Assembly: GCA_026391355.1 (NCBI GenBank)
Contig: JAPLDH010000063.1
Coordinates: 1 to 64,000 of the forward strand
Origin: Bacteroidota bacterium
GTDB lineage: Bacteria; Bacteroidota; Bacteroidia; Bacteroidales; FEN-979
Length of the DNA stretch: 64,000 bases
Reading direction: 5' to 3'
The position numbers and the translations under genes are program-made. Below the pieces are notes generated by a model. It made no database searches. It saw nothing but the letters and a program-made list of their open reading frames with translations, and was not told the origin of the DNA. Shown one piece after another: positions 9,690-20,112 of this stretch (position 1 is its first letter; each line of letters starts with the position of its first letter).

Positions 9690-10442
9690 TCACCTGAGGC
9701 AAACAACAAGGAAATCTTTGGAGCCGATGGTCAATGGGCGTTCGTGATAATCCCCGAAGATCCGGAAGTCGGTAAACTTCGACATCGTTAAGAGGTGTTC
9801 CAGTTCATACCTGAAGAAAAGCCTGAGCTCTGTGTTCCAGGTTTCAGATTGAACCTTTCCTTTTTCGCTCCATTCAAAGCGGAACGTAACATGGGTGATC
9901 TGGTTCACGATGTCGCTGTGCGAAGAGGTGATCCGCCGCACCGTTTCCCCCGGGGCATTTTCCCCTTCAAAATCGGTGACTTCATTCATTCCTCTTTCAA
10001 GAAGCCCCGGATTAGGAACAAAGAGATCGAAAATAAAAAGGCCACCCTCTTCAAGGTAATCGTAAACATGGTTCAGCGCGGCAATCTGTTCCTGAACCGT
10101 CGTGAGGTGCATAAAAACCCGGAAAGGAGCAATAACCAAGGCAAATTTTTTATCAAGGGTAAAGCCGGTTATACTCTGAAGAGAGATCCTGTGCTGATCT
10201 TTTTTGTCAATCCTTGACCTCAGGATATCCAGCATCGATGGACTAATGTCGATCCCGTAAATGTCGGCTCCCTGGTTCAGTGCCTCAATAAAAAAGCGTC
10301 CTGTACCCGTACCTACTTCCAGCACAGGTCCGTTTGCCTCACTGATCTTTTTTAGGAAGTAATCTGTGTCAACACCTGACCTTATATGGCTGTAGATCAG
10401 ATCATAGAAGCGGGCGAAGAATTGCGGGTAGAGGGTGGTCAT
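9690..10442 (-). CDS. class I SAM-dependent methyltransferase
   Basis: A 250-residue Rossmann-fold methyltransferase. The SAM-binding motif I is 'VLEVGTGTGRFFIEAL' near residues 37-52, followed by the acidic strand end 'GADIYGIDISPSML' near 56-69 and 'FALVIAPFRVFMHL' as the motif IV region. The C-terminal half resembles small-molecule methyltransferases of the Methyltransf_25/11 type. The substrate is unknown. The start codon at 10442 is the last ATGACC unit of a long heptad tract. Spacing of 30 bp to the O-antigen ligase suggests cotranscription. Confidence 0.85.
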   Translation of the reverse strand: MTTLYPQFFARFYDLIYSHIRSGVDTDYFLKKISEANGPVLEVGTGTGRFFIEALNQGADIYGIDISPSMLDILRSRIDKKDQHRISLQSITGFTLDKKFALVIAPFRVFMHLTTVQEQIAALNHVYDYLEEGGLFIFDLFVPNPGLLERGMNEVTDFEGENAPGETVRRITSSHSDIVNQITHVTFRFEWSEKGKVQSETWNTELRLFFRYELEHLLTMSKFTDFRIFGDYHERPLTIGSKDFLVVCLR

Positions 10443-10666
10443 GGGTTATTGGTCATTGGTCATTAAGTCATTGGTCATTGGTCATTGGTCATTGGTTATT
10501 AAGTCATTGGTTATTAAGTCATTGGTCATTAAGTCAAAAGGTCATTAGGTCATTAGGTCATTTGGGAAGAAGCGATTAGACAATAGACAATAGGCATTGG
10601 TGTTTTGACCTTTGACATTTGATTTTTTTTACTGATGACTTAATGACTTAATGCCCAATGACCAGT
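10443..10666 (-). repeat. two-armed intergenic heptad cassette
   Basis: Read on the coding (minus) strand, the interval between the 10670-10945 gene and the methyltransferase gene begins with GTCATTAAGTCATT units. It passes through a middle part with phrases such as CAAATGTCAAAGGTCAAAA and GCCTATTGTCTATTGTC, and ends with many AATGACCTAATGACC units up to the start codon at 10442. The two arms are inverted relative to each other and could pair as an imperfect long stem. This is the longest heptad tract in the window. Confidence 0.8.
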
Positions 10667-10669
10667 ATA

Positions 10670-10945
10670 TTACAAATTAAACAGAATGACTAATGTGATA
10701 ATGGCGAGCACGATTGGTACCAGGATCAGCACCTTTTTCCGGTCGCGGTTGATAAAGCCCTGGCATTCAATCGCCTTTTCCGTTGCGAATTTATCTCCCG
10801 GCTTATATTGGAGGGCTGCTTTGAACTCCTCCCGTGCTGACCGGAACAGGTCGATCTTGATAAAGTCGGCTCCGCGTTGTGTATGCTCACGGTATTTCAG
10901 CTCTTCGTGGGAGAGGGGTTCTTCCTGTACTTCATGACTGGACAT
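10670..10945 (-). CDS. small tail-anchored protein, TPR-like
   Basis: A 91-residue protein. The N-terminal two thirds is helical and resembles a single tetratricopeptide-type hairpin ('FRSAREEFKAALQYKPGDKFA', near residues 34-54). The C terminus is one strong membrane helix ('VLILVPIVLAIITLVILFNL', 72-91) with almost nothing after it, so the protein should be tail-anchored with its helical part in the cytoplasm. I do not recognise a named family. A good TAnnTTTG element lies about 20 bp upstream, which supports expression as its own unit. A scaffold or assembly role is possible but only a guess. Confidence 0.7.
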   Translation of the reverse strand: MSSHEVQEEPLSHEELKYREHTQRGADFIKIDLFRSAREEFKAALQYKPGDKFATEKAIECQGFINRDRKKVLILVPIVLAIITLVILFNL

Positions 10946-10965
10946 AATTTTTCTGTTTTAAAGTC

Positions 10966-10973
10966 CAAAAGTA
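10966..10973 (-). promoter_or_regulatory. candidate -7 element TACTTTTG
   Basis: Minus-strand TACTTTTG matches TAnnTTTG and lies 20 bp upstream of the ATG at 10945. Confidence 0.5.
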
Positions 10974-10982
10974 TAAAAAATA

Positions 10983-11143
10983 TTGGAATTAGGAATTTGG
11001 AAAAAGGAATTTGGAAAGAGGAATTAGGAATGCAGAAATGCAGGAGTGCAGAATTAATCCCTTGGGGTTACATAATTTCTGGAATGACGAATATGCGAAT
11101 GACGAATAACTATTGCCTACTGCCTGTTGCCTATTGCCTCCTA
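10983..11143. repeat. phrase cassette left of the defence genes
   Basis: Roughly 160 bp of near-repeats: GGAATTAGGAATTTGGAA units, ATGCAGAAATGCAGGAGTGCAG, GAATGACGAATATGCGAATGACG and finally TGCCTACTGCCTGTTGCC. It ends directly at the 30-bp direct repeat at 11146. No gene is seen between 10946 and 11265 other than this and the elements listed separately. Confidence 0.65.
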
Positions 11144-11145
11144 AG

Positions 11146-11175
11146 TCAAAGATACAATCTAAAAGCAATTCACAA
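11146..11175 (-). repeat. left 30-bp direct repeat flanking the defence cassette
   Basis: This copy and the one at 18657-18686 are identical at 29 of 30 positions and lie in the same orientation on either side of the xre-helicase-methyltransferase genes. Read on the minus strand with one more base at this copy, it begins GTTGTGAATTGCTTT and ends TATCTTTGA. That form resembles the 5' part of Bacteroidota type II-C CRISPR repeats as I remember them. It also contains TTG-N18-TATCTTTG, a full promoter match. Only single copies are present, not an array. Confidence 0.8.
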
Positions 11176-11260
11176 CGTATTCAGTGTTAAGTATCTGTCT
11201 TAATAGCCATAAGTAATAAAAAAAGTTATAAACATCCGGAGAAAATTTTATTTTTTTTAC

Positions 11261-11268
11261 TATTTTTG
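11261..11268 (+). promoter_or_regulatory. candidate -7 element for the defence operon
   Basis: TATTTTTG fits TAnnTTTG. It overlaps the first half of the inverted repeat at 11266-11282, so a protein bound there would block transcription. Confidence 0.5.
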
Positions 11269-11282
11269 ACAAATTCTGTCAA
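11266..11282. promoter_or_regulatory. probable XRE operator TTGACA-N5-TGTCAA
   Basis: TTGACAAATTCTGTCAA is a perfect 6-bp inverted repeat with a 5-base spacer. It lies over the promoter and just before the regulator's reading frame, the usual position for an autoregulatory operator of a restriction-modification control protein. Confidence 0.55.
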
Positions 11283-11298
11283 GTCAATATTTGGTCAA

Positions 11299-11607
11299 TT
11301 GGGTAACTTCGGTCAGCGAATCAGGGAACTCAGGGAAGGCAAGGGTCTTCTGCTTCGGGAAATAGCGGCTTCCCTTGAAATAGACACAGGATTGATGAGT
11401 AAAATTGAAAGGGGCGAACGCAAACCAAACCGGGACCAGGTAAAGCGGATCGCCCGGATACTGAAAGCTGATAACAAGGAATTGCTTACGCTGTGGCTCG
11501 CCGATAAAGTTCAGTATATTATCAATGAGGAGTTGTCGGTAGCCGAAGAAGCATTGGAAATTGTTAAACGAAAGTTAAAGCATGATACCGAGAATTATTC
11601 TCATTGA
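11299..11607 (+). CDS. XRE-family transcriptional regulator (C-protein-like)
   Basis: A helix-turn-helix protein of about 102 residues. The HTH is complete: 'FGQRIRELREGKGLLLREIA', then 'SLEIDTGLMSKIERGERKPN', then 'RDQVKRIARILKAD'. A short helical tail follows. No ATG lies upstream of the HTH. The open frame allows TTG at 11266 or 11299; because the likely -7 element overlaps 11266, the TTG at 11299 (protein start MGNFGQRIREL) is preferred. It overlaps the helicase gene by 26 bp, so the two are coupled. By position it should control the downstream restriction-type genes, possibly by binding the inverted repeat over its own promoter. Confidence 0.8.
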   Translation: MGNFGQRIRELREGKGLLLREIAASLEIDTGLMSKIERGERKPNRDQVKRIARILKADNKELLTLWLADKVQYIINEELSVAEEALEIVKRKLKHDTENYSH

Positions 11608-14600
11608 CAATTCGTCAGAAAATTACTCCCTTGGATATGCATTTAAGGAACTGATCAGCGATCCCTCTTTTTCACAGGTGGCCATCGCCTCAGGATATTG
11701 GGATTTACTAGGTATGGCCTTGATTTATGATGATTTAAAGTCATTTCTGGAACGGGAGAACACATCATTCAGGCTGCTCCTTGGCGAAGAACCATGTGTA
11801 CGTACATATCAGGTTAAAAATCCGGAGAACCAGGATCCTGAATTCCCGGAAAAATATTTTAAAAAGGATCTCGAAGAACTCGAACTAAAAGATGAATATC
11901 AGAAGGTAGTAGATCTGCTTTTAAAACATACAAAGCCGAATGGTAAACTTCAAATCAGGGTTTACCGTAAAAATTTTCTTCATGCTAAATGTTACATCTT
12001 TGGGAGTGTTGAGGATAATGCCGTCGGATTATTAGGGAGCTCCAATTTTACATTTCAGGGACTATCCGGCAACCTTGAACTCAACCAACTGGAAGATAAT
12101 AACGCAACCGTAAATTATATCCGCAAAAACATTACCCAACATCCTACACACCGGTCATGGTTTGAGGAATTGTGGAGCAACAGTGAAGCCTGGACCGGGA
12201 TCTTCTCAGAAGAGATTCTCGATGTCAGCAAGCACGGAAGCCTTTGTTTCAGCCCGTATGAAATGTATATACATGCATTGTACAGAATTTATGGACAGGA
12301 ACTTCTTGATGAAAAAGAGAACAAGGTCGAACCAAATGATCCTGCATCCGGAAAACCGCAAATGCTTAAATTCCAAATACAGAATGCCAATAGTATAATC
12401 AAAAAATTAGAACGGCAAGGCGTTGCCATGCTTTCGGATTCGGTTGGATTAGGTAAAACTTACACTGCAATTAAAGTAATCGAATATTACCAGCAAACCC
12501 GCCAACAACGGGTTGTTGTAATCACACCAGCAGGGTTGAAGTCGCAATGGGAAAAAGCCTTTGCAGATTTCAGGTTTAAAAATATTCCGGAAATACTTTC
12601 AATGCAAGACATAAATAAAGTTCAGGACAGAAGAGAAACTTACAAGAGTATTTCTGTCGGGTTATTTGTGTTCGATGAGAGTCATAATCTAAGAACGGCG
12701 GGCGGCAGCCGTTCAGATATTTTTACTCAATGGAAAATGGAGAATGAAAAAGCACATACATTGTTGGTAACTGCTACACCCATTAATAATCAACTTTCAG
12801 ATTTGACAAATCAAATAATAATTGGTACAGGAGGAGAATTGACAAAACTTGGTTTTCATGTCAATGACAGAGGAAACCGGGAAACAATTCAGGAAAGACT
12901 GGCCATTATTCAAAAAAAAATCAAGACAGATATTACTTCTGGTTTTATTGATTACCATGGAATAAGAGAGCAACTTACCCCACTTCTAAATAAGTTTATC
13001 GTAAAGAGAACAAGACAAAGTATCGAAAAAGAATTTCCTGACGGTCTTTTGATAAATGGAATCCTGCAAAAATTTCCAAAGTCCATTCCATTTAATTTGG
13101 AATACACTGTTTCAAATCAATTCAAATCAGAATTGGAAAAGTATGCTGCCAATTATCCCAGATTGGCGAAGGCTTTCCAATTTACCATTAATAGTTTAGC
13201 TGAGTTAAAATACCTGGCTCATCCTTTAGATTTATTCGAATACTACGAAAAAAGAAAAATTCCAATTTCGTCATCACTGGAAATCATATATACAGGACTG
13301 CTTTCACTTGGCTTTCCATGTTATAGGTATAATATTTACAGGTGGGCTTATTATGGGAGAAACAGAGAAGCAGACGATTTTAAGTTAACGAGTGATGAAA
13401 ACAAGGAACTTAGCAGGCAAATTGGTATATATGGAATTTTCAGAACAGTTTTTTTAAAACGACTTGAATCTTCATTGTTCTCAATTCAAAAGTCTGTTTC
13501 AAGCTATGAAGATAAACTACTTGATTTTCAAAAAAAGTTGATCAGGTACAACAAGATCATTTCTGTAAAGAATCTTTCATCCCTGAATAAATTTATTGAT
13601 TCCTACAATGAGCAAAATGCAGGAGAAGATGAACTGGATTTTGATTTTGCCACTTTTGAAAACAGGGAAGATGGTTTTTTTAGTATAGATGCGGATAAAG
13701 GAGTTTTTAATATTGACCAGTTAAAAGAAGATATTGCCAAAGATCTGGCTATAATCCAGGTGTTGAAAAAGCAATTGGACTTGCTGATTAAAAAGGACGA
13801 TAAGATACAGCAACTTGCCAAACACCTAAATCAAAATGATGACAGGAAGGTATTAATATTCACTTATTTTGCCGATACGTTAAAATACCTGCAAAACGAC
13901 CTGCCTCAATATTTGCTTAAGGGCAGGAATGTTGAATTTGCGTTAGGTACCAAAAGTGAAATTGAAAATTTTGCCAGGCGATTTGCTCCGGTTGCAAAAC
14001 AATATACTTTAAAAACGGACGAAAGAGAAATAGATTATTTACTGGCAACCGACAAACTTTCAGAAGGGCAGAATCTTCAGGATAGTGGAATGATAGTGAA
14101 TTATGATTTACACTGGAACCCAGTCCGGATGATTCAGCGAAATGGCCGGATCAATCGGTTAGGATCTACTTTTGAGGAAATTTATGTATATAATTTTCGC
14201 CCAACTGATCAGTTAGAGAGTTATTTGCAGTTGGTAAATAAATTGCAAACAAAAATTGACTTAATCAGGTACACTGTGGGAACCGATCAGTCTGTTCTGG
14301 ATGAAGAACCAATTCCACAGGAATTCACTGAGGAATTATACAGTCGGGATGAAAAGAAAAGGTTAGCTGCTTTACAAAAAATTATGGAAACAACGGAATA
14401 CCTCGGTGCCGAGCCAATATTCCTCGAAGACCTCAGATATTTTGATAATAACCCTGATATTGATGATACGTACAAAGAAAAAATAAAAAATCTACCTAAA
14501 GGGAAATGGGGTAAAATTCAGGAAAAACAAAAAGATGATGAATTTTTGCACATTGCACATCTGGCCGCAGGAGAAGAAGATACATTTGAAGCAGGATTTT

Positions 14601-15079
14601 TTGTGGTATTTGGAAAGAATGAAATTGGCGTCATGATGTCGGAAGCCGAAGGGCTGAATTATATTAAAACCACCAGTGACAATAACAAAAGATTTTCTGA
14701 TCAGTTTAAAAATAAAGTACAAACGGAAGAAATGATCAGAAACTTTATTGACCTTTATGATATTTCAGAGGATGTTCATAATATCCGATATGGGAAACAA
14801 CAGGAAGAAGCCATTGCAGCATTGATTACCAGAATGATTGAATATGGAGAATCACCTGAAATCATTGAAATGGTGACAAATTCGATCTTGCATTCACAAA
14901 ATGCCTATATAAACAGGGAAAACCTGAAATTGGTGAAACAAGTAAATAGTAAAATCCGAAAAGGAGAACATTTTGGATCAAAAGAGATAGAACGATTTAA
15001 ACAATTGGCGTTACAAAACAAACCCGAAGAAAAAACAGTGAAAGTCCCACTTTCAGAAATCATTCAAATTTTTGCATAG
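11582..15079 (+). CDS. PLD-nuclease / SNF2-type helicase fusion (restriction component)
   Basis: A 1165-residue protein. Residues about 1-190 carry one phospholipase D-type nuclease half-site: H134-x-K136 in 'FLHAKCYIFG', then 'GSSNFTFQGLSGNLELN' (N155, E166). A single HKD motif implies a dimeric active site, as in the BfiI-like nucleases. Residues about 270-900 form a superfamily 2 SNF2-like motor with Walker A 'SVGLGKTY' (about 287-294), Walker B 'DESH' (365-368), 'TATP' (397-400) and motif VI 'QRNGRINRLG' (about 851-860). The C-terminal 250 residues are unassigned. The methyltransferase gene begins at the next base after its stop. It probably translocates on DNA and cuts unmodified DNA; the pairing suggests an ATP-dependent restriction system. 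From about 12.7 kb the DNA is richer in A+T than the metabolic genes. Confidence 0.85.
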   Translation: MIPRIILIDNSSENYSLGYAFKELISDPSFSQVAIASGYWDLLGMALIYDDLKSFLERENTSFRLLLGEEPCVRTYQVKNPENQDPEFPEKYFKKDLEELELKDEYQKVVDLLLKHTKPNGKLQIRVYRKNFLHAKCYIFGSVEDNAVGLLGSSNFTFQGLSGNLELNQLEDNNATVNYIRKNITQHPTHRSWFEELWSNSEAWTGIFSEEILDVSKHGSLCFSPYEMYIHALYRIYGQELLDEKENKVEPNDPASGKPQMLKFQIQNANSIIKKLERQGVAMLSDSVGLGKTYTAIKVIEYYQQTRQQRVVVITPAGLKSQWEKAFADFRFKNIPEILSMQDINKVQDRRETYKSISVGLFVFDESHNLRTAGGSRSDIFTQWKMENEKAHTLLVTATPINNQLSDLTNQIIIGTGGELTKLGFHVNDRGNRETIQERLAIIQKKIKTDITSGFIDYHGIREQLTPLLNKFIVKRTRQSIEKEFPDGLLINGILQKFPKSIPFNLEYTVSNQFKSELEKYAANYPRLAKAFQFTINSLAELKYLAHPLDLFEYYEKRKIPISSSLEIIYTGLLSLGFPCYRYNIYRWAYYGRNREADDFKLTSDENKELSRQIGIYGIFRTVFLKRLESSLFSIQKSVSSYEDKLLDFQKKLIRYNKIISVKNLSSLNKFIDSYNEQNAGEDELDFDFATFENREDGFFSIDADKGVFNIDQLKEDIAKDLAIIQVLKKQLDLLIKKDDKIQQLAKHLNQNDDRKVLIFTYFADTLKYLQNDLPQYLLKGRNVEFALGTKSEIENFARRFAPVAKQYTLKTDEREIDYLLATDKLSEGQNLQDSGMIVNYDLHWNPVRMIQRNGRINRLGSTFEEIYVYNFRPTDQLESYLQLVNKLQTKIDLIRYTVGTDQSVLDEEPIPQEFTEELYSRDEKKRLAALQKIMETTEYLGAEPIFLEDLRYFDNNPDIDDTYKEKIKNLPKGKWGKIQEKQKDDEFLHIAHLAAGEEDTFEAGFFVVFGKNEIGVMMSEAEGLNYIKTTSDNNKRFSDQFKNKVQTEEMIRNFIDLYDISEDVHNIRYGKQQEEAIAALITRMIEYGESPEIIEMVTNSILHSQNAYINRENLKLVKQVNSKIRKGEHFGSKEIERFKQLALQNKPEEKTVKVPLSEIIQIFA

Positions 15080-18000
15080 ATGACAATTCAACATCTCAAT
15101 AATATACTTGTCGAGTTATACCAGAATAAAACAAGAGAAAAAGTTATGGAGTTTGCTTTTACTCTTATTGAATGGATGGGGTTAATTGCCCACGATGATA
15201 AAAAGGGACAGTTATTGGCTCCTCAAACAAATAAACTAAAAGGTTTTTTAGCCCCGGTTCCAAAAACAGCCCAGCCGCAGTTATACAGACTTACAGCCGA
15301 TGGACAAAATATCCGTATCCGGTTTGCAGTATTGAACAATTTGAAAAAAGAAACCATCAATCAATTGGTGGATAATGACCCGGGCCTTACCAGTTATCAG
15401 GCAATTACAAAAGGAATCGGAAAAACTGTAAACGGAACTGCATTTATTCCTTCTCAGCCCTATTTTATTCATTTTGTAACCACAAAAGATTATGACCGTC
15501 TGATCCTGATTTTTAATCAGGGCGACCAAAAACGCCTTGTTTCGTTCCGAAACAGGTTAACCAATACTCAATACTTTAAAATTATTTTACAATGGCAATA
15601 CATTGCCCGAAAATCAAAGCCAGAGATTTCCGATCTGCTATGGAAAAGTCTCGATGTTAAAGAAGTCAATAAAGACTTTTACAAACAAATTAAAGAGCGT
15701 TTTGATGCTTTATTGGGTATGGTCAAATCTTACAACCTGGATGCAACCGAAAATCAGGTAAAACAATTCGCGATAAAATTGATTGGCCGATACCTCTTTT
15801 GTTGGTTTCTGAAGGAAAAAGAGATTATCCCCAACAGCTTGATTTGTAGTGATTACATAAAAAAAACAGACAATTATCATCAACTTTTCCTTCAAAAGCT
15901 ATTTTTTGGAATACTTAATTCCAGGATTCAGGATAGAGATTGGCTGATTACTGAATCAACAGAAATAAAACACTTCTTCGAAAAGATACCCTATCTGAAT
16001 GGAGGCCTTTTTGACAAGACCACTGAAGATGAATTATTTGCAACCCTTGAATTAAATCCATGGTTAATTAAGTTTGTTGAGGTTCTGGAAAATTATGATT
16101 TTACAGTTGACGAAAGCAGTAACCAATATCAGCAGGTAGCTGTTGACCCTGAAATGTTGGGGCGTATTTTTGAGAATCTATTGGCAAGCCAGAACCCTGA
16201 AACCGAAAAAGCAGCAAATAATGAACGAAAAGCCTTTGGCGCTTTCTATACACCCCGGGAGATTGTGGACTATATGGTAGATGAGGGTTTAAAAACCTAT
16301 TTAGCCGGTAAACTGAATATTCATTCTGATGAATTAACTTATGCATTTTCTGCTAATCCGGTATGGCCTGACAAATTATCAAAAAGGAAACCAGAGGCAG
16401 AGGCTGCTTTGAAAAATGTAAAAATTCTTGACCCGGCTTGCGGTTCCGGTGCTTTTCCGATGGGTGTTTTACATCGCCTTATCAGTTTAAGGGAAATTTT
16501 AAGCCTGCAGCCAAATACTTATCTACTTAAAAAAGAAATTCTTTCAAACAACATTTACGGTGTGGATATCATGCCCATGGCAATTGAGATTGCCCGTCTC
16601 AGAGCATGGCTTTCTCTGATTGTCGAAGAAGATTACAAAGGCGAAAAGGTTTCCGGTAATTTCGGTATCGATGCTCTGCCGAATTTAGACTTCAAATTTA
16701 TGCAGGGGAATTCGCTACTTGAAACATTCGAAGGTATTAAATTATTTGATGAGAAATTGCTTTTGGTAAAAATTGCCAGTGATAAACAGGATCTGATAGA
16801 CAAAACAAAGAATAAACTGAATGAACTACAACAAACCTACATTACACTCCATCAAACAAATCAACTGAAAGGAACTACAAAAGCGATCCTTGATATTGAA
16901 CTTAAACAAAATAAAGAATTACTGACAAGGATTCTGAAAGCAGAGGAACCCAATGCCAATTATGGTTTGTTTCAGACAGAAGAACATACCGATAATATCA
17001 CGGAGAAATTACAAAAGCTACACTCGGAGTTATTCAGTACGTCGGAAAAAGATCGTAAAAAAGAACTTATTCTTGCAATAGAAACACTTGAATGGAAGTT
17101 GATTGCAACAACTTTAAAGGAACATGGCAAAACCGATAAACTGAATGATCTTGAAAATCTTCGGAAGCAAAATATAAGACCCTATTTCCTTTTTAAACTC
17201 AATTTTCCGGAAGTATTTACCGAAAAAGGAGGATTCGATATTGTAATCGGAAACCCGCCTTATGTGCGCCAGGAGGCCATTGACCCCTATTACAAACCCA
17301 AATACATAGCCAATCATCCCGAAGTAGGCAGTGGTACTGCCGATTTATATGTTTACTTTTTCGATTCAGCCCTTTCTGTTACAAATAAAGGTGGTATTAT
17401 CATTTTTATTACCCTGAATAAATACCTGAAAACAAAATATGGTGAGGGTTTACGAAAAAAGTTAAAAGATAAAAATGTTGATTTGATTATTGATTTTTTT
17501 GAACTTCCCGTTTTTGAGGCAAGCACCGATACTGCAATTACTAAAATTATCAATTCACCGGATACAGACACTACCCGCTATTTTCCTGTAAAATCATTGG
17601 ATCAACTTGATTTAAATGTGTTGACTAGGTGTGAGCCTTTAAAAGTGATTAAAGATGGCTCAGAGTGGAAATTTATCGATGAATCGAATGTTAAACTTCT
17701 CGGTAAATTTTATAATAATTCAATTTCCCTTCAAAATTATAGCAATGACAAAATTTATCGCGGATTGACAACTGGATTAAACAATGCATTTATTTTTGAT
17801 GAGGAAGTTGCAATTCCTATTGCAAATTCCGAAAGTAATGTACTATTACGAAAATACGCACATCCAAAAGGAATTAAAAAATGGAAAATTGAAAATGAAA
17901 AATTTTTCTTATCAACTGGATTTGATATAGATATAGAGAATAAATATCCTAAAGCGTATAATCATTTATTGCCTTTTAAAGAAGAATTATTGATAAGACA

Positions 18001-18508
18001 AGACAAAGGTAAAAAATGGTGGAATCTTAGGGCCTGTGCGTATTATGATTTATTTGACAAACCAAAACTAATATACATTAGAACCGCGAAAAATCATACT
18101 TTCTATTTTGATGAAGAAGGATATTATATAAATGATTCTTGTTTTTTAATATCTACAAGCAACAAGTATTTATTTTTCTTTTTAAATTCATATTTATTTG
18201 ATTGGTATAAGAGAATTAAATTTGTAGCATACGGTGATGCAGATGAAGGTGGTCGCGTAAAACTTGAATACAATAAAATGGTTTCTGTTCCCATTAAGCA
18301 AATTACCGATAATCAGTTAAAATGGTTTGAAAACCAATATGCGGTTATTAAATCAGTGCTTGGCAATGAAGCAAGGGTGAAAACTTTAGAACAAGAAGCA
18401 GAAACCATGCTTTTTAAAATATACGAACTCACCTTCAATGAAGTAAAAACGGTTTGTCAGGATTTCTGGATGGATGAGCAGGATTATTTGCAATTGAAGT
18501 TTGAATAA
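15080..18508 (+). CDS. class I N6-adenine DNA methyltransferase with C-terminal specificity domain
   Basis: A 1142-residue Eco57I/BREX-PglX-like methyltransferase. 'FGAFYTPREIVDYMVDEGL' near residues 390-408 marks the start of the core, motif I is 'DPACGSGAF' from D451, and the catalytic motif IV 'NPPY' is N725-Y728. About 390 residues precede the core and a TaqI-like target-recognition region follows it. I see no PD-ExK nuclease in the N-terminal part, so cutting is presumably done by the upstream PLD-helicase protein. The start ATG directly abuts that gene's stop. It would methylate adenine at a specific site to protect host DNA. The N-terminal residues resemble those of the short reading frame that follows. 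Confidence 0.9.
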   Translation: MTIQHLNNILVELYQNKTREKVMEFAFTLIEWMGLIAHDDKKGQLLAPQTNKLKGFLAPVPKTAQPQLYRLTADGQNIRIRFAVLNNLKKETINQLVDNDPGLTSYQAITKGIGKTVNGTAFIPSQPYFIHFVTTKDYDRLILIFNQGDQKRLVSFRNRLTNTQYFKIILQWQYIARKSKPEISDLLWKSLDVKEVNKDFYKQIKERFDALLGMVKSYNLDATENQVKQFAIKLIGRYLFCWFLKEKEIIPNSLICSDYIKKTDNYHQLFLQKLFFGILNSRIQDRDWLITESTEIKHFFEKIPYLNGGLFDKTTEDELFATLELNPWLIKFVEVLENYDFTVDESSNQYQQVAVDPEMLGRIFENLLASQNPETEKAANNERKAFGAFYTPREIVDYMVDEGLKTYLAGKLNIHSDELTYAFSANPVWPDKLSKRKPEAEAALKNVKILDPACGSGAFPMGVLHRLISLREILSLQPNTYLLKKEILSNNIYGVDIMPMAIEIARLRAWLSLIVEEDYKGEKVSGNFGIDALPNLDFKFMQGNSLLETFEGIKLFDEKLLLVKIASDKQDLIDKTKNKLNELQQTYITLHQTNQLKGTTKAILDIELKQNKELLTRILKAEEPNANYGLFQTEEHTDNITEKLQKLHSELFSTSEKDRKKELILAIETLEWKLIATTLKEHGKTDKLNDLENLRKQNIRPYFLFKLNFPEVFTEKGGFDIVIGNPPYVRQEAIDPYYKPKYIANHPEVGSGTADLYVYFFDSALSVTNKGGIIIFITLNKYLKTKYGEGLRKKLKDKNVDLIIDFFELPVFEASTDTAITKIINSPDTDTTRYFPVKSLDQLDLNVLTRCEPLKVIKDGSEWKFIDESNVKLLGKFYNNSISLQNYSNDKIYRGLTTGLNNAFIFDEEVAIPIANSESNVLLRKYAHPKGIKKWKIENEKFFLSTGFDIDIENKYPKAYNHLLPFKEELLIRQDKGKKWWNLRACAYYDLFDKPKLIYIRTAKNHTFYFDEEGYYINDSCFLISTSNKYLFFFLNSYLFDWYKRIKFVAYGDADEGGRVKLEYNKMVSVPIKQITDNQLKWFENQYAVIKSVLGNEARVKTLEQEAETMLFKIYELTFNEVKTVCQDFWMDEQDYLQLKFE

Positions 18509-18623
18509 CATGGAATTAAATCAGATAGATAAGGTTCTGTCCCGGCTTGAAAATGATAAGGCAAATGGTCGTGATCACATTTTATCCTTGGTTGCCGCAC
18601 TGATTGAATGGATGGGAATACAA

Positions 18624-18653
18624 CCGGTTGCTTCGACTATGCTCAGCAACCGG
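18624..18653. repeat. REP-like palindrome
   Basis: A perfect 9-bp stem (CCGGTTGCT with AGCAACCGG) encloses the loop TCGACTATGCTC. The TTCGACTATGCTCAGC core resembles short dispersed palindromes that I recall from many Bacteroidota and cyanobacterial genomes. It lies at the break point of the truncated methyltransferase copy and three bases before the right-hand 30-bp repeat. Confidence 0.75.
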
Positions 18654-18656
18654 GGT

Positions 18657-18686
18657 TCAAAGATACAATCTGAAAGCAATTCACAA
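18657..18686 (-). repeat. right 30-bp direct repeat flanking the defence cassette
   Basis: Same sequence and orientation as 11146-11175 with one difference (G for A at the sixteenth base on the plus strand). It follows the palindrome at 18624-18653 and is itself followed by phrase-type repeats (18688-18792). Confidence 0.8.
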
Positions 18687-18687
18687 T

Positions 18688-18792
18688 AAAGTGCCAAATG
18701 GCAAATCCAAAGTGCAATGTGCAAAGTGCAAAAAAATAGTCTTGGTCACCTTGTCACAGGTCCCATGTCCCATGTCACACGTCACATGCCGC
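18688..18792. repeat. phrase cassette right of the defence genes
   Basis: Near-repeats GTGCCAAATGGCAAATCC, AAAGTGCAATGTGCAAAGTGC, then GTCACAGGTCCCATGTCCCATGTCAC. The last phrase is the complement-related form of the GGGACATGGGACACGGGAC run at 30032-30092. Confidence 0.6.
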
Positions 18793-18793
18793 G

Positions 18794-19735
18794 TCAGTGC
18801 AGCCTGTACGAGATACCAACCCCGATATTTTCCCGGAATTGAGTTCTGGGGCCTGTTTTGCCATGAATATCCGTGATCATGACCTGGTCATCATAGATGA
18901 GGGCAAGATTAACTGATGTTGCCAACCATTTGCCGGCTTTCAGTGTGAGAAGCATGTTCCAGTTCACATTGATATCGCCAAAATTCTTGAAATAGTTGGT
19001 GAACAGGTCGAGGGTGCTGCTGATACTGGCGGATTTCCCCAGTTCCTGGTTCAGAGACGCCCTGACATAAGCCCCGAATTCAGCCTTTACCTTTTTTCCC
19101 CTGTCCACACCACACGCGCCTGAATCGGAAAGTGCCGGATCAATCACAAAAATAAGACGACCTGCTGCGGGTGACATAAACAAGTTGAAAGATTTTACAG
19201 GAACCCAGGTGAAACCAAGCCCTGCTATCAGATAACCAGGCGACATGAATTTAGCGATGATCACACTGTCGTTCGGATAGTTGTATCCGTCGGTAAATTG
19301 AGTCTTGAAATTCAAAATAGCACTTAAGTCCCAGGTTTTGGAAATACCATAGCCATAGCTCGAATTGAGTTCGATGCGGTCGTCGGTTTTGCGGTATTGA
19401 TTGTCGCTGCTCCCAGGTGCAAGATATTGAAAACCGTAAGCCATGTCAAGGTTGTTCTGCCAGGAATGTTTCCCCTTCCTGTATCCTGCCTGGAAGCTGG
19501 CAAAGGTGTTCAATCCTATGGAACTTTGACCACCTGCAGCCCAGTTAACAAGATACACCTGGTTCACATTCAGGGAAGCCACCCCTGTCCAGGTCCAGTG
19601 TTTAATGGTATCCGGCGCTGCGTCAAGATGCCGGACTGCGGCCTGTACCTTTTTAATATCGCCCTGGGCAGATCCGGCCAGGTAAAGGAATACCAGCAGA
19701 GAAAGTAAAAGGGTCTTTTTCATAAATTGTAACAT
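18794..19735 (-). CDS. DUF3078 outer-membrane barrel protein
   Basis: A 313-residue secreted protein with signal peptide 'MKKTLLLSLLVFLYLAGSAQ' (the ATG at 19723 may be the true start; 19735 adds four residues). After a short linker comes 'WTWTGVASLNVNQVYLVNWA' and 'GGQSSIGLNTFASFQAGY', the hallmark of the Bacteroidota DUF3078 family. The rest alternates polar and hydrophobic residues as beta strands of an outer-membrane barrel and ends in a hydrophobic strand with a C-terminal aromatic/basic tail. Its function is unknown in the literature I know. It shares its strand with the mini-MscL gene 20 bp upstream. Confidence 0.85.
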   Translation of the reverse strand: MLQFMKKTLLLSLLVFLYLAGSAQGDIKKVQAAVRHLDAAPDTIKHWTWTGVASLNVNQVYLVNWAAGGQSSIGLNTFASFQAGYRKGKHSWQNNLDMAYGFQYLAPGSSDNQYRKTDDRIELNSSYGYGISKTWDLSAILNFKTQFTDGYNYPNDSVIIAKFMSPGYLIAGLGFTWVPVKSFNLFMSPAAGRLIFVIDPALSDSGACGVDRGKKVKAEFGAYVRASLNQELGKSASISSTLDLFTNYFKNFGDINVNWNMLLTLKAGKWLATSVNLALIYDDQVMITDIHGKTGPRTQFRENIGVGISYRLH

Positions 19736-19999: not shown

Positions 20000-20112
20000 C
20001 GTTACGCGTAACGCGTGACACGTGACCAAATGACCAATGACTAATGACTAATGACTAATGACTAATGACCTTTTTCTGACTCGCCAGTTCACCATCTCAC
20101 CAATTCACCAAC
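20000..20112 (-). repeat. phrase cassette after the PepSY-like gene
   Basis: On the coding (minus) strand, directly after the gene stop, come GGTGAATTGGTGAGATGGTGAACTGG, then GTCATTAGTCATTAG units, then a perfect 12-bp palindrome GTTACGCGTAAC at 20001-20012. The same module order (GGTGAACTGGTGA, then GTCATTAG) follows the 3' end of icd at 54096-54149. Confidence 0.7.

What the first reader, a model, noticed from the sequence alone, without database searches (positions are those of the whole stretch)
11299..18508. Compact candidate defence system: XRE regulator, PLD-SNF2 helicase fusion, large adenine methyltransferase
A single-HKD PLD nuclease fused to an SNF2 motor, directly abutting an Eco57I/PglX-like methyltransferase, resembles a two-gene ATP-dependent restriction system. 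DISARM has separate PLD (DrmC), SNF2 helicase (DrmD) and methylase genes plus DrmA/DrmB, which are absent here. ISP enzymes put nuclease, helicase and methylase in one chain but with an Mrr-type nuclease. This split with a PLD nuclease fits neither. A dimeric PLD would need two converging motors or dimerisation to cut.
Basis: partly seen in the sequence, partly recalled or inferred. Interest (0 to 1): 0.78.

Follow-up and report, generated by a model that had tools for sequence, protein, structure and literature searches.

The report
Two-gene ATP-driven restriction system with controller
A mobile set of three genes in a bacterium most likely makes a DNA-cutting defence machine: one protein marks the cell's own DNA and reads the target, another runs along unmarked DNA and cuts it, and a small switch protein keeps the dose in check; similar gene pairs occur in several bacterial phyla, and no bench test of one was found.

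Summary
They form a real unit: in 25 of 25 homologous loci whose contigs run on far enough (27 examined) an Eco57I/PglX-like adenine methyltransferase follows the PLD-SNF2 gene, from Bacteroidota to Streptococcus. The PLD residues H, K, N and E and the motor lysine are kept in 74 of 74 aligned homologues; the Asp of classical HxKx4D is Gly here. The motor-nuclease has a median pairwise identity of 80% between Bacteroidota loci, the methyltransferase's recognition region 28%, so specificity lies in the methyltransferase. Best reading: an ATP-dependent restriction-modification enzyme, like Type ISP split in two with a PLD nuclease. DISARM, BREX, Hma/BR and Type ISP each fail a tested defining feature. 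Not unprecedented: a 2018 paper describes such a pair on a lactococcal plasmid as a putative type II system; I found no functional test. New here: a conserved operator before the XRE gene, a homologous controller with a like operator before a Type III system in the same genome, signs of recognition-domain inversion in lactococcal relatives, an empty site in relatives, and two solitary CRISPR-repeat relics flanking the insert. Nothing was tested at the bench.

The parts
11261..11283 (+). Operator-like motif TAnnTTTGACA-N5-TGnCAAG over a Bacteroidota-type -7 box; begins 38 bp before the HTH start at 11299
   Evidence: 17 of 18 distinct HTH-bearing loci match at <=2 mismatches, 0 of 2 distinct loci of the same group without the HTH gene, 1 hit elsewhere in the 526 kb scanned (L004=L019 and L003=L026 counted once). 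The -7 consensus TAnnTTTG is recalled.
11299..11607 (+). XRE-type HTH controller, 102 aa (TTG start; a longer ORF begins at 11266)
   Evidence: Pfam HTH_31 44.3 bits over cut-off 27; PADLOC capH 1.7e-10 and Control_protein 2.4e-7; matched upstream in 13 of 15 Bacteroidota loci
11582..15079 (+). PLD nuclease fused to SNF2 motor, 1165 aa: restriction/translocation subunit
11981..12079 (+). PLD active-site stretch H134, K136, G152-S153-x-N155, E166 (Gly at the canonical Asp position 141)
   Evidence: H, K, G, S, N, E the same in 74 of 74 aligned homologues (74 of the 80 loci; six had no frame of 850 aa); position 141 is G in 27 of 27 of clades 1 and 2, D in 26 of 47 of clade 3
12434..12460 (+). 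Walker A SDSVGLGKT (residues 285-293)
   Evidence: invariant in 27 sequences; G289, G291, K292 the same in 74 of 74, T293 is S in 11
12674..12685 (+). motif II DESH (365-368)
   Evidence: E366 and H368 in 74 of 74, D365 in 73
14135..14164 (+). motif VI QRNGRINRLG (852-861)
   Evidence: Q852, R853, R856, R859 in 74 of 74
15080..18508 (+). Adenine-N6 methyltransferase with fused recognition domain, 1142 aa: modification/specificity subunit
   Evidence: Pfam Eco57I, TaqI_C; model matches CamA Z 24.4, PglX Z 21.5, LlaGI Z 20.5, MmeI Z 18.8
16430..16450 (+). motif I DPACGSG (451-457)
   Evidence: invariant or nearly invariant in 20 sequences
17252..17263 (+). motif IV NPPY (725-728)
   Evidence: invariant in 20 of 20
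17570..18505 (+). hypervariable recognition region (831-1142)
   Evidence: median pairwise identity 28% against 63% for residues 1-550 (11 Bacteroidota rows) and 80% for PLD-SNF2 (16 rows)
18510..18632 (+). 5' remnant (41 codons) of a second, different methyltransferase of the same family
   Evidence: 58-64% identity over 36-38 aa to the starts of the methyltransferases in L021, L019, L017; only 6 residues matched in the window's own (first 60 aa of each compared)
18626..18651 (.). short palindrome at which the remnant ends
   Evidence: read by eye
11146..11176 (-). solitary fragment (first 31 nt) of a type II-C-like CRISPR repeat, left of the cassette
   Evidence: 0 mismatches to the pattern, which has one free position; same repeat in arrays of G001 and G242
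18657..18687 (-). second solitary CRISPR-repeat fragment, right of the cassette
   Evidence: 1 mismatch; Rfam CRISPR-DR49 23.3 bits, below its cut-off of 41, E 2.5
10946..18793 (.). inserted stretch between two genes that are neighbours in relatives
   Evidence: match ends of the two genes lie 17-278 bp apart in 10 of 11 relatives fetched; in the eleventh only one gene was found

Best explanation
It is an ATP-dependent restriction-modification system built from two subunits. The methyltransferase reads an (inferred) asymmetric site through its C-terminal recognition domain and methylates one adenine of it in host DNA. On unmethylated foreign DNA it instead recruits or activates the PLD-SNF2 protein, whose SNF2 motor moves along double-stranded DNA; when two complexes meet, or one stalls, their PLD domains form one composite active site and cut, probably without metal. 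The XRE protein binds the operator over its own promoter and holds down the whole operon. Shown: domain content, intact catalytic motifs, conserved pairing, place of the variable specificity region, conserved operator-like motif, insertion relative to relatives. Inferred: complex formation, translocation, collision, cleavage, repression, defence.
For: Pair conserved across phyla and adjacent; also in four plasmid loci of lactic acid bacteria. PLD residues kept in 74 of 74. PLD-SNF2 nearly uniform while the recognition region of the methyltransferase is hypervariable, as expected if the methyltransferase supplies specificity; PLD-SNF2 and methyltransferase 1-550 distances correlate (rho 0.89 over 20 loci, 0.43 within 11 Bacteroidota rows; 0 of 1000 permutations as high in each). 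Fold of the methyltransferase matches the M-TRD part of ISP enzymes and BREX PglX; the motor matches SNF2 ATPases and RapA by sequence. On two lactococcal plasmids the first part of the recognition domain is active on one and silent and inverted on the other, beside a serine invertase gene. A homologous controller with the same kind of motif stands before a Type III R-M operon in this genome. Published models: SauUSI, PLD-SF2 dimer (PMC7913695 passages); ISP convergence (PMC7049714 abstract).
Against: No experiment. The PLD lacks the classical Asp. The 1165-aa model is only of medium confidence (mean pLDDT 69, pTM 0.47), and the PLD domain was not matched on its own. No complex was modelled. 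The methyltransferase's N-terminal 190 residues were not folded alone, so a hidden nuclease there is not excluded. In 28 of 53 more distant PLD-SNF2 loci no methyltransferase match was found in the DNA held, so the motor-nuclease family may also work in other settings. PLD-SNF2 residues 1051-1100 are also variable (41% to the window), so a recognition role of that part is not ruled out. One of 7 carriers among 100 genomes has a broken gene, and L033's methyltransferase frame is broken.
Confidence: 0.78

Rival explanations
1. The methyltransferase is a self-contained Type IIG enzyme that cuts with its own N-terminal nuclease; the PLD-SNF2 protein is an accessory or a separate defence gene.
For: PADLOC's best match is REase_MTase_IIG (342 bits; 514 and 545 bits for two clade 2 proteins). 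REBASE calls the lactococcal relative IIG, as told in PMC6098607. An N-terminal ~190-aa domain precedes the PglX-like part, and the DrdV alignment reaches into it (from residue 89-91).
Against: No acidic residue is conserved in 80% or more of 20 homologues within residues 1-190 (best: position 74, 15 of 20 D/E), unlike a PD-(D/E)xK site; the 2018 paper also found no restriction domain; the PLD-SNF2 gene is beside it in all 25 testable loci of clades 1 and 2.
Confidence: 0.1
2. A BREX/DISARM/Hma-like system that has lost or disperses its other parts and blocks phage replication without ordinary site-specific cutting.
For: The motor resembles DrmD (112 bits in PADLOC) and RapA-type helicases; the methyltransferase resembles PglX and DrmMI. 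Type-2 BR helicases also have an N-terminal HKD domain (PMC12839542 passages).
Against: No DUF499, DrmA, DrmB, PglZ or BrxC-like protein among ten flanking genes scanned; the one PADLOC hit there is mad2 on a 250-aa SAM methyltransferase. DUF499 occurs in this genome only on another contig, and in 1 of 16 genomes of clade 1 and 2 loci searched. The pair is the same from Bacteroidota to Streptococcus.
Confidence: 0.08
3. The unit is mainly a selfish addiction module kept by post-segregational killing, as proposed for some R-M systems, rather than a phage defence.
For: Insertion with an empty site in relatives, neighbourhoods that differ by eye between carriers, own controller and operator-like motif, a decayed copy in G015, plasmid carriage of relatives.
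Against: ATP-dependent enzymes that need two sites are usually poor post-segregational killers (recalled); signs of recognition-domain switching fit an arms race better. Not exclusive with the main reading.
Confidence: 0.12

Closest known systems
Lactococcus lactis pLd8 orf33/orf34 (PMC6098607, 2018; section on restriction-modification read in full) and relatives pJM1F, pUCCL629A, pUCCL635A
   Same: PLD + SNF2 + helicase C protein followed by IIG-type N6-adenine methyltransferase; described there as putative type II R-M. I saw the arrangement on pJM1F, pUCCL629A and pUCCL635A; pLd8 itself was not fetched.
   Different: About 31-33% identity to the window protein; no gene annotated as HTH beside the three lactococcal pairs (a Lactiplantibacillus plasmid has one); two of the three carry an invertase gene and an inverted recognition-domain copy.
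Type ISP enzymes LlaGI and LlaBIII
   Same: nuclease, SF2 motor, methyltransferase and recognition domain; the methyltransferase part superposes (5ffj Z 20.5, 4xqk Z 19.9)
   Different: one chain with an Mrr-type nuclease (start of the PMC4666363 abstract in the listing; PMC3874165 passage); here two chains and a PLD nuclease
SauUSI (Type IV)
   Same: PLD nuclease fused to an SF2 motor, dimer through PLD domains, ATP-dependent (PMC7913695 passages)
   Different: recognises methylated targets through its own SRA domain on the same chain; no methyltransferase partner (recalled)
CglI and NgoAVII
   Same: PLD nuclease plus SF2 motor plus methyltransferase, ATP-dependent (PMC4267653 abstract)
   Different: PLD joined to a B3 recognition domain, motor on another chain with a Z1 domain (passage of PMC7913695); cytosine methyltransferase (recalled)
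Type-2 BREX-related (BR) / Hma systems
   Same: N-terminal HKD domain on an SNF2 helicase, N6 methyltransferase (PMC12839542 passages)
   Different: DUF499 ATPase and DUF3780 belong to it; no DUF499 on the window's contig; DUF3780 was not searched by itself
Class 1 DISARM
   Same: PLD, SNF2 helicase and adenine methyltransferase activities
   Different: separate genes plus DrmA and DrmB (recalled); none seen here

Membership tests
DISARM | DrmA and DrmB beside the methyltransferase | tested here: not met
   none among ten flanking genes scanned with PADLOC at E<=1e-5
DISARM | DrmD at its curated NCBIfam cut-off | tested here: not met
   140.8 bits against cut-off 610
BREX | PglX at its curated cut-off, with PglZ and BrxC | tested here: not met
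   PglX BREX-1 70.9 bits against 500; no PglZ or BrxC-like protein among ten flanking genes
BR / Hma | DUF499 ATPase in the locus | tested here: not met
   in this genome only on contig C54, not C21
BR / Hma | N-terminal HKD domain on the SNF2 helicase (Type-2 BR) | tested here: met
   PLDc_2 residues 114-185, motor from about 260 on
Type ISP | single chain with Mrr-family nuclease | tested here: not met
   two ORFs, PLD domain
Type ISP | methyltransferase-TRD module of ISP fold | tested here: met
   5ffj_B Z 20.5, 514 aligned, rmsd 5.2; 4xqk_B Z 19.9, 572 aligned, rmsd 5.5
Type IIG | active nuclease domain at the N-terminus of the methyltransferase | tested here: inconclusive
   no acidic residue conserved in 80% of 20 homologues within 1-190, but the domain was not folded alone
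CglI/NgoAVII | NgoFVII-type PLD, with the motor on a separate chain | tested here: not met
   RE_NgoFVII 22.0 bits, below cut-off 23.8; PLD and motor on one chain
Two-gene PLD-SNF2 / IIG-type methyltransferase group (pLd8-like) | PLD-SNF2 gene followed by Eco57I-type methyltransferase, same protein family | tested here: met
   clades 1 and 2 form one group with support 100 (the lactococcal proteins themselves were not in that tree)
N6-adenine methyltransferase (gamma class) | motif I then NPPY, C-terminal recognition domain | tested here: met
Phage defence system | restriction of phage | not testable with these tools
   needs plating

The most novel reading that the evidence does not exclude
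The unit belongs to a widespread, unnamed class of ATP-dependent restriction enzymes in which a specificity-free PLD-SNF2 motor-nuclease is aimed by an exchangeable one-chain methyltransferase, so that swapping or inverting the recognition domain re-aims modification and cutting together, and in Bacteroidota a portable XRE controller with a fixed operator governs it as well as Type III systems. PADLOC's models split it into a 'Type IIG' gene and an unnamed helicase candidate.
Probability: 0.5. Interest if true: 0.66.

Novelty: new variant of a known kind. Interest (0 to 1): 0.5.

Why it matters
If right, it adds an architecture to the ATP-dependent restriction enzymes that separates motor-nuclease from recognition in two genes, so specificity could be changed by exchanging one protein and the collision model could be tested with another kind of nuclease. 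It also suggests that defence catalogues undercount this class: its methyltransferase scores best as Type IIG and its partner only as an unnamed candidate. The operator-like motif is very specific: its strict form hit 2 of 393 genomes, both at this operon, although both copies were already known to me.

Tried and rejected
DUF499/BR membership: searched in this genome and 22 locus genomes; 4 of 23 had a match, the own one on another contig. The guess that all distant PLD-SNF2 homologues are BR/Hma was not borne out for the few looked at: eight proteins lying between methyltransferase and PLD-SNF2, or just before PLD-SNF2, in seven distant loci gave varied families, none DUF499. The distant set as a whole was not surveyed for DUF499 (5 of the genomes plus L040's belong to it: L040, L047, L050, L054, L058, L063, of which L040's and L058's genomes had a match somewhere).

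The PDB sequence search found RapA best for the motor and CamA, BseCI and PglX/BrxX for the methyltransferase; no PLD restriction enzyme was among the 60 chains shown for the first, nor in the structural lists, which one domain filled; this says nothing on the PLD fold.

Direct repeats flanking other cassettes: of 16 loci compared, L020 alone had a strong one (32 bp, 97%), of another sequence; so repeat-flanked insertion is not a general trait and no mobility mechanism is claimed. Other copies of the flanking repeat in the window genome were looked for and not found at 3 mismatches; its cas1 locus has an array of a different repeat.

A mistake found on checking: I first took the G272 hit of the operator search (L231) as an independent find. 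It is the same record as L025; likewise L004 = L019 and L003 = L026. Operator counts are given for distinct loci, and the 393-genome search shows specificity only. An earlier count gave an older count.

Phage records: no record covered 80% of either protein. Viral contigs: 80 of 86 loci kept, 25-38% identity; 8 of 80 also hold a methyltransferase match at E<=1e-10. The sigma-70 promoter and terminator scan was uninformative. Literature: searches brought up the two-gene pair only in PMC6098607, as far as the listings and the passages I opened show; two searches sought named lactococcal plasmid systems, whose source paper is not held, so I cannot exclude that one of them is this pair. That paper is recalled, not seen.

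Dropped rows: L026's contig ends 208 bases after PLD-SNF2 and L030's ends inside the gene, so both were left out of the adjacency count; L007 (decayed) misses the operator pattern at 2 mismatches; searches used 75 of 81 possible PLD-SNF2 rows (frames of 850 aa or more), two of them identical (L085, L087); L035 and L082 are near-copies (93% DNA identity) and both are counted.
Full report
OBSERVATION. One search confirms three intact + strand genes: XRE-type HTH (11299-11607, TTG start; longer ORF from 11266), PLD-SNF2 (11582-15079, 1165 aa) and methyltransferase (15080-18508, 1142 aa). Pfam scores pass curated cut-offs for HTH_31, PLDc_2, SNF2-rel_dom, Helicase_C, Eco57I and TaqI_C. The window lies on contig C21 of a 4.83-Mb genome in 81 contigs; that it is a Bacteroidota genome is inferred from its nearest homologues.

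CONSERVATION OF THE PAIR. A scan of genome contigs gave 80 loci, the best of 164. Fifteen Bacteroidota loci (L013-L027; 64-69% identity) and twelve loci from Patescibacteria, Elusimicrobia, Bacilli, Clostridiaceae, Acholeplasmataceae, Streptococcus, Enterococcus and unplaced bacteria (L028-L038, L082; 32-38%, L030 not aligned there) carry full or near-full PLD-SNF2. In 25 of these 27 the contig runs on far enough, and in 25 of 25 an Eco57I-type methyltransferase follows on the same strand: in 24 directly, in L022 after an inserted stretch of about 1.6 kb. In L033 its frame is broken after 82 codons, the first part being recognisable as a methyltransferase start. L026's contig ends 208 bases after PLD-SNF2 and L030's inside it. 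Four of four lactic acid bacteria plasmid loci opened show the same pair. Among 100 genomes (own and 99 relatives), 6 including the own one hold an orthologue, full length or cut by a contig end, and one more, G015, a copy broken by stops. A tree of 75 proteins puts clades 1 and 2 together with support 100 and apart from 47 distant homologues (the tool warns of long-branch joins). In 53 distant loci a methyltransferase match lies upstream in 24, downstream in 1 and was not found in 28; 17 of these 28 have less than 5 kb held upstream.

ACTIVE SITES. In the 74 homologues aligned, H134, K136, G152, S153, N155 and E166 of the PLD are the same in all; so are the motor residues checked, except T293 (S in 11) and D365 (E in 1), both among the 47 distant ones. 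Position 141, Asp in classical HxKx4D, is Gly in the window and in all 27 close homologues; 26 of 47 distant ones have Asp. SauUSI has Glu there (PMC7913695 passage), so the position varies in known PLD restriction enzymes too. The methyltransferase keeps DPACGSG and NPPY.

WHERE SPECIFICITY LIES. Within the Bacteroidota set PLD-SNF2 has a median pairwise identity of 80% (minimum 64; 16 rows), methyltransferase residues 1-550 63%, 551-700 27%, 701-830 35% and 831-1142 28% (11 rows). PLD-SNF2 has no comparably variable domain, though residues 1051-1100 drop to 41% identity with the window. Distances of PLD-SNF2 and methyltransferase 1-550 correlate (rho 0.89 for 20 loci, 0.43 for 11 Bacteroidota rows; 0 of 1000 permutations as high in each case), those with the rest of the methyltransferase less (0.62 and 0.24). 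The inference is that the methyltransferase aims the motor-nuclease.

STRUCTURE. The models are of medium confidence (PLD-SNF2 mean pLDDT 69, pTM 0.47; methyltransferase 72 and 0.64). The motor matches SNF2 ATPases over about residues 242-889 (Z up to 19.8; ZorD 18.5); RapA is the best solved relative by sequence. The methyltransferase matches CamA (Z 24.4), PglX/BrxX (21.5, from residue 193), LlaGI (20.5), LlaBIII (19.9), DrdV (19.1) and MmeI (18.8). Its first 190 residues show no acidic position conserved in 80% of 20 homologues, against a Type IIG nuclease there, but were not folded alone.

SWITCHING IN RELATIVES. On lactococcal plasmids pJM1F (L096) and pUCCL629A (L095) the methyltransferase is followed by an inverted partial copy of its recognition domain and by an Mpi-family serine recombinase gene. 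An inverted repeat of 267-270 bp (72-75% identity) joins the two. The first part of the recognition domain that is active on one plasmid is silent on the other and the reverse, while the later parts differ. This is what inversion between two specificities, followed by divergence, would leave; pUCCL635A has no invertase gene in its locus. In the window there is no invertase, but directly after the methyltransferase stop lies a 41-codon start of another methyltransferase of the family (58-64% identity over 36-38 aa to three relatives), so exchange of the methyltransferase has probably happened here too.

CONTROLLER. Upstream of the HTH gene, 14 of 14 loci looked at (window and 13) carry two half sites TTGACA...TGnCAA 10 bp apart over a TAnnTTTG box (that this is the Bacteroidota -7 consensus is recalled). 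As TAnnTTTGACA-N4-[TA]TGACAAG with up to 2 mismatches it is found in 18 of 19 HTH-bearing loci, which are 17 of 18 distinct ones; the miss is the decayed L007, whose worn copy is visible. It is absent from the loci of the same group without the gene (L003 = L026, and L021), and occurs once elsewhere in the 526 kb scanned (L029); five rounds of letter-shuffled window and L013-L038 gave 3 hits in all. A strict form searched in 393 genomes of the order hit 2: the window, and G272, which precedes HTH-PLD/SNF2 but is the same record as L025. So the motif is specific, but no new carrier was found with it. In the own genome the relaxed motif has one other perfect match and one with a mismatch, the latter not followed; the backward control pattern had 1 hit. 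The other perfect match precedes an HTH gene 54% identical to the window's over 88 aa, followed by Type III restriction and modification genes (REase_III 514 bits, MTase_III 524 bits). Homologous controllers thus precede two different ATP-dependent R-M types in one genome, which supports the R-M reading. Repression is inferred from the overlap with the promoter box.

INSERTION AND THE CRISPR RELICS. The genes on either side (10670-10945 and 18794-19735) were sought in 43 genomes of the family by the second one (39 with a match, own included); 11 of the 38 others were fetched. In 10 of these 11 the two genes' match ends are 17-278 bp apart, without the unit; in the eleventh only the second gene was found. 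Two solitary 31-nt repeats in the same orientation flank the unit and occur nowhere else in the genome at 3 mismatches. The sequence is the first part of the repeat of arrays, mostly of 75-77 bp period, in other genomes: 23 of 198 genomes of the order, own included, match at 3 mismatches, and 3 of 43 in the family; it is exact in G001 of the same genus (5 copies, one with a mismatch) and in G242 (11 copies). Beside these two arrays lie proteins that I read by eye, without a profile search, as Cas1 with Cas2 or Cas9. Rfam gives CRISPR-DR49 below its threshold. The own genome has a Cas1 locus with a different repeat. How two truncated CRISPR repeats came to flank a restriction unit is unexplained; recombination at repeats of a lost array is one guess.

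MECHANISM AND COMPARISON. The parts are those of a Type ISP enzyme, but in two chains and with PLD in place of Mrr. By analogy with LlaBIII (convergence of two translocating enzymes, PMC7049714 abstract) and SauUSI (PLD dimer, stall-induced cutting, passages), I expect ATP-driven movement and cutting when complexes meet or stall. DISARM, BREX, BR/Hma, ISP and CglI/NgoAVII each fail at least one tested feature; the Type IIG test stayed inconclusive. The group to which it does belong was noted in PMC6098607, the only description that my searches brought up: orf33 and orf34 of pLd8, called a putative type II system and likened to DISARM domains (section read in full). I saw no functional test.

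VERDICT. A real, conserved, recently inserted unit that reads as an ATP-dependent restriction-modification system: a new variant of a known kind, described before at domain level in one plasmid paper, untested.

Noticed in passing
window 11146-11176 and 18657-18687 (-): Two solitary, equally truncated type II-C-like CRISPR repeats flank the unit in a genome where no array of that repeat was found; the sister species G001 has one.
   Followed up: partly
L229 (G000:C76:48000-60000), motif at about 3807: A Type III R-M operon in the same genome has a homologous XRE gene and the same kind of operator motif: perhaps a portable controller of ATP-dependent R-M systems.
   Followed up: partly
L095 13992-15654 and L096 7794-9579: Signs of recognition-domain inversion beside an Mpi-family recombinase gene in lactococcal relatives; the first parts of active and silent copies are exchanged between two plasmids.
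   Followed up: partly
window 18510-18632: Remnant of the start of a second methyltransferase ending at a short palindrome.
   Followed up: yes
G000:C54:146263-155059: DUF499 ATPase match and an SNF2-type helicase match about 8 kb apart: perhaps a separate BR/Hma-type system in this genome.
   Followed up: no
L022 5102-6698: About 1.6 kb with small ORFs between PLD-SNF2 and methyltransferase; one looks RhuM-like by eye.
   Followed up: no
L132, L133, L134, L136, L148: Other solitary copies of the type II-C-like repeat in genomes of the order; L132's stands next to genes that look like Cas1 and Cas2, no such gene was seen by eye beside the others.
   Followed up: no
L007 (G015): A decayed copy of the system with stops and a deletion in PLD-SNF2.
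   Followed up: no
window 10436-10560 and 20016-20063: Simple GGTCATTA/TAATGACC-type repeats around the insertion region.
   Followed up: no
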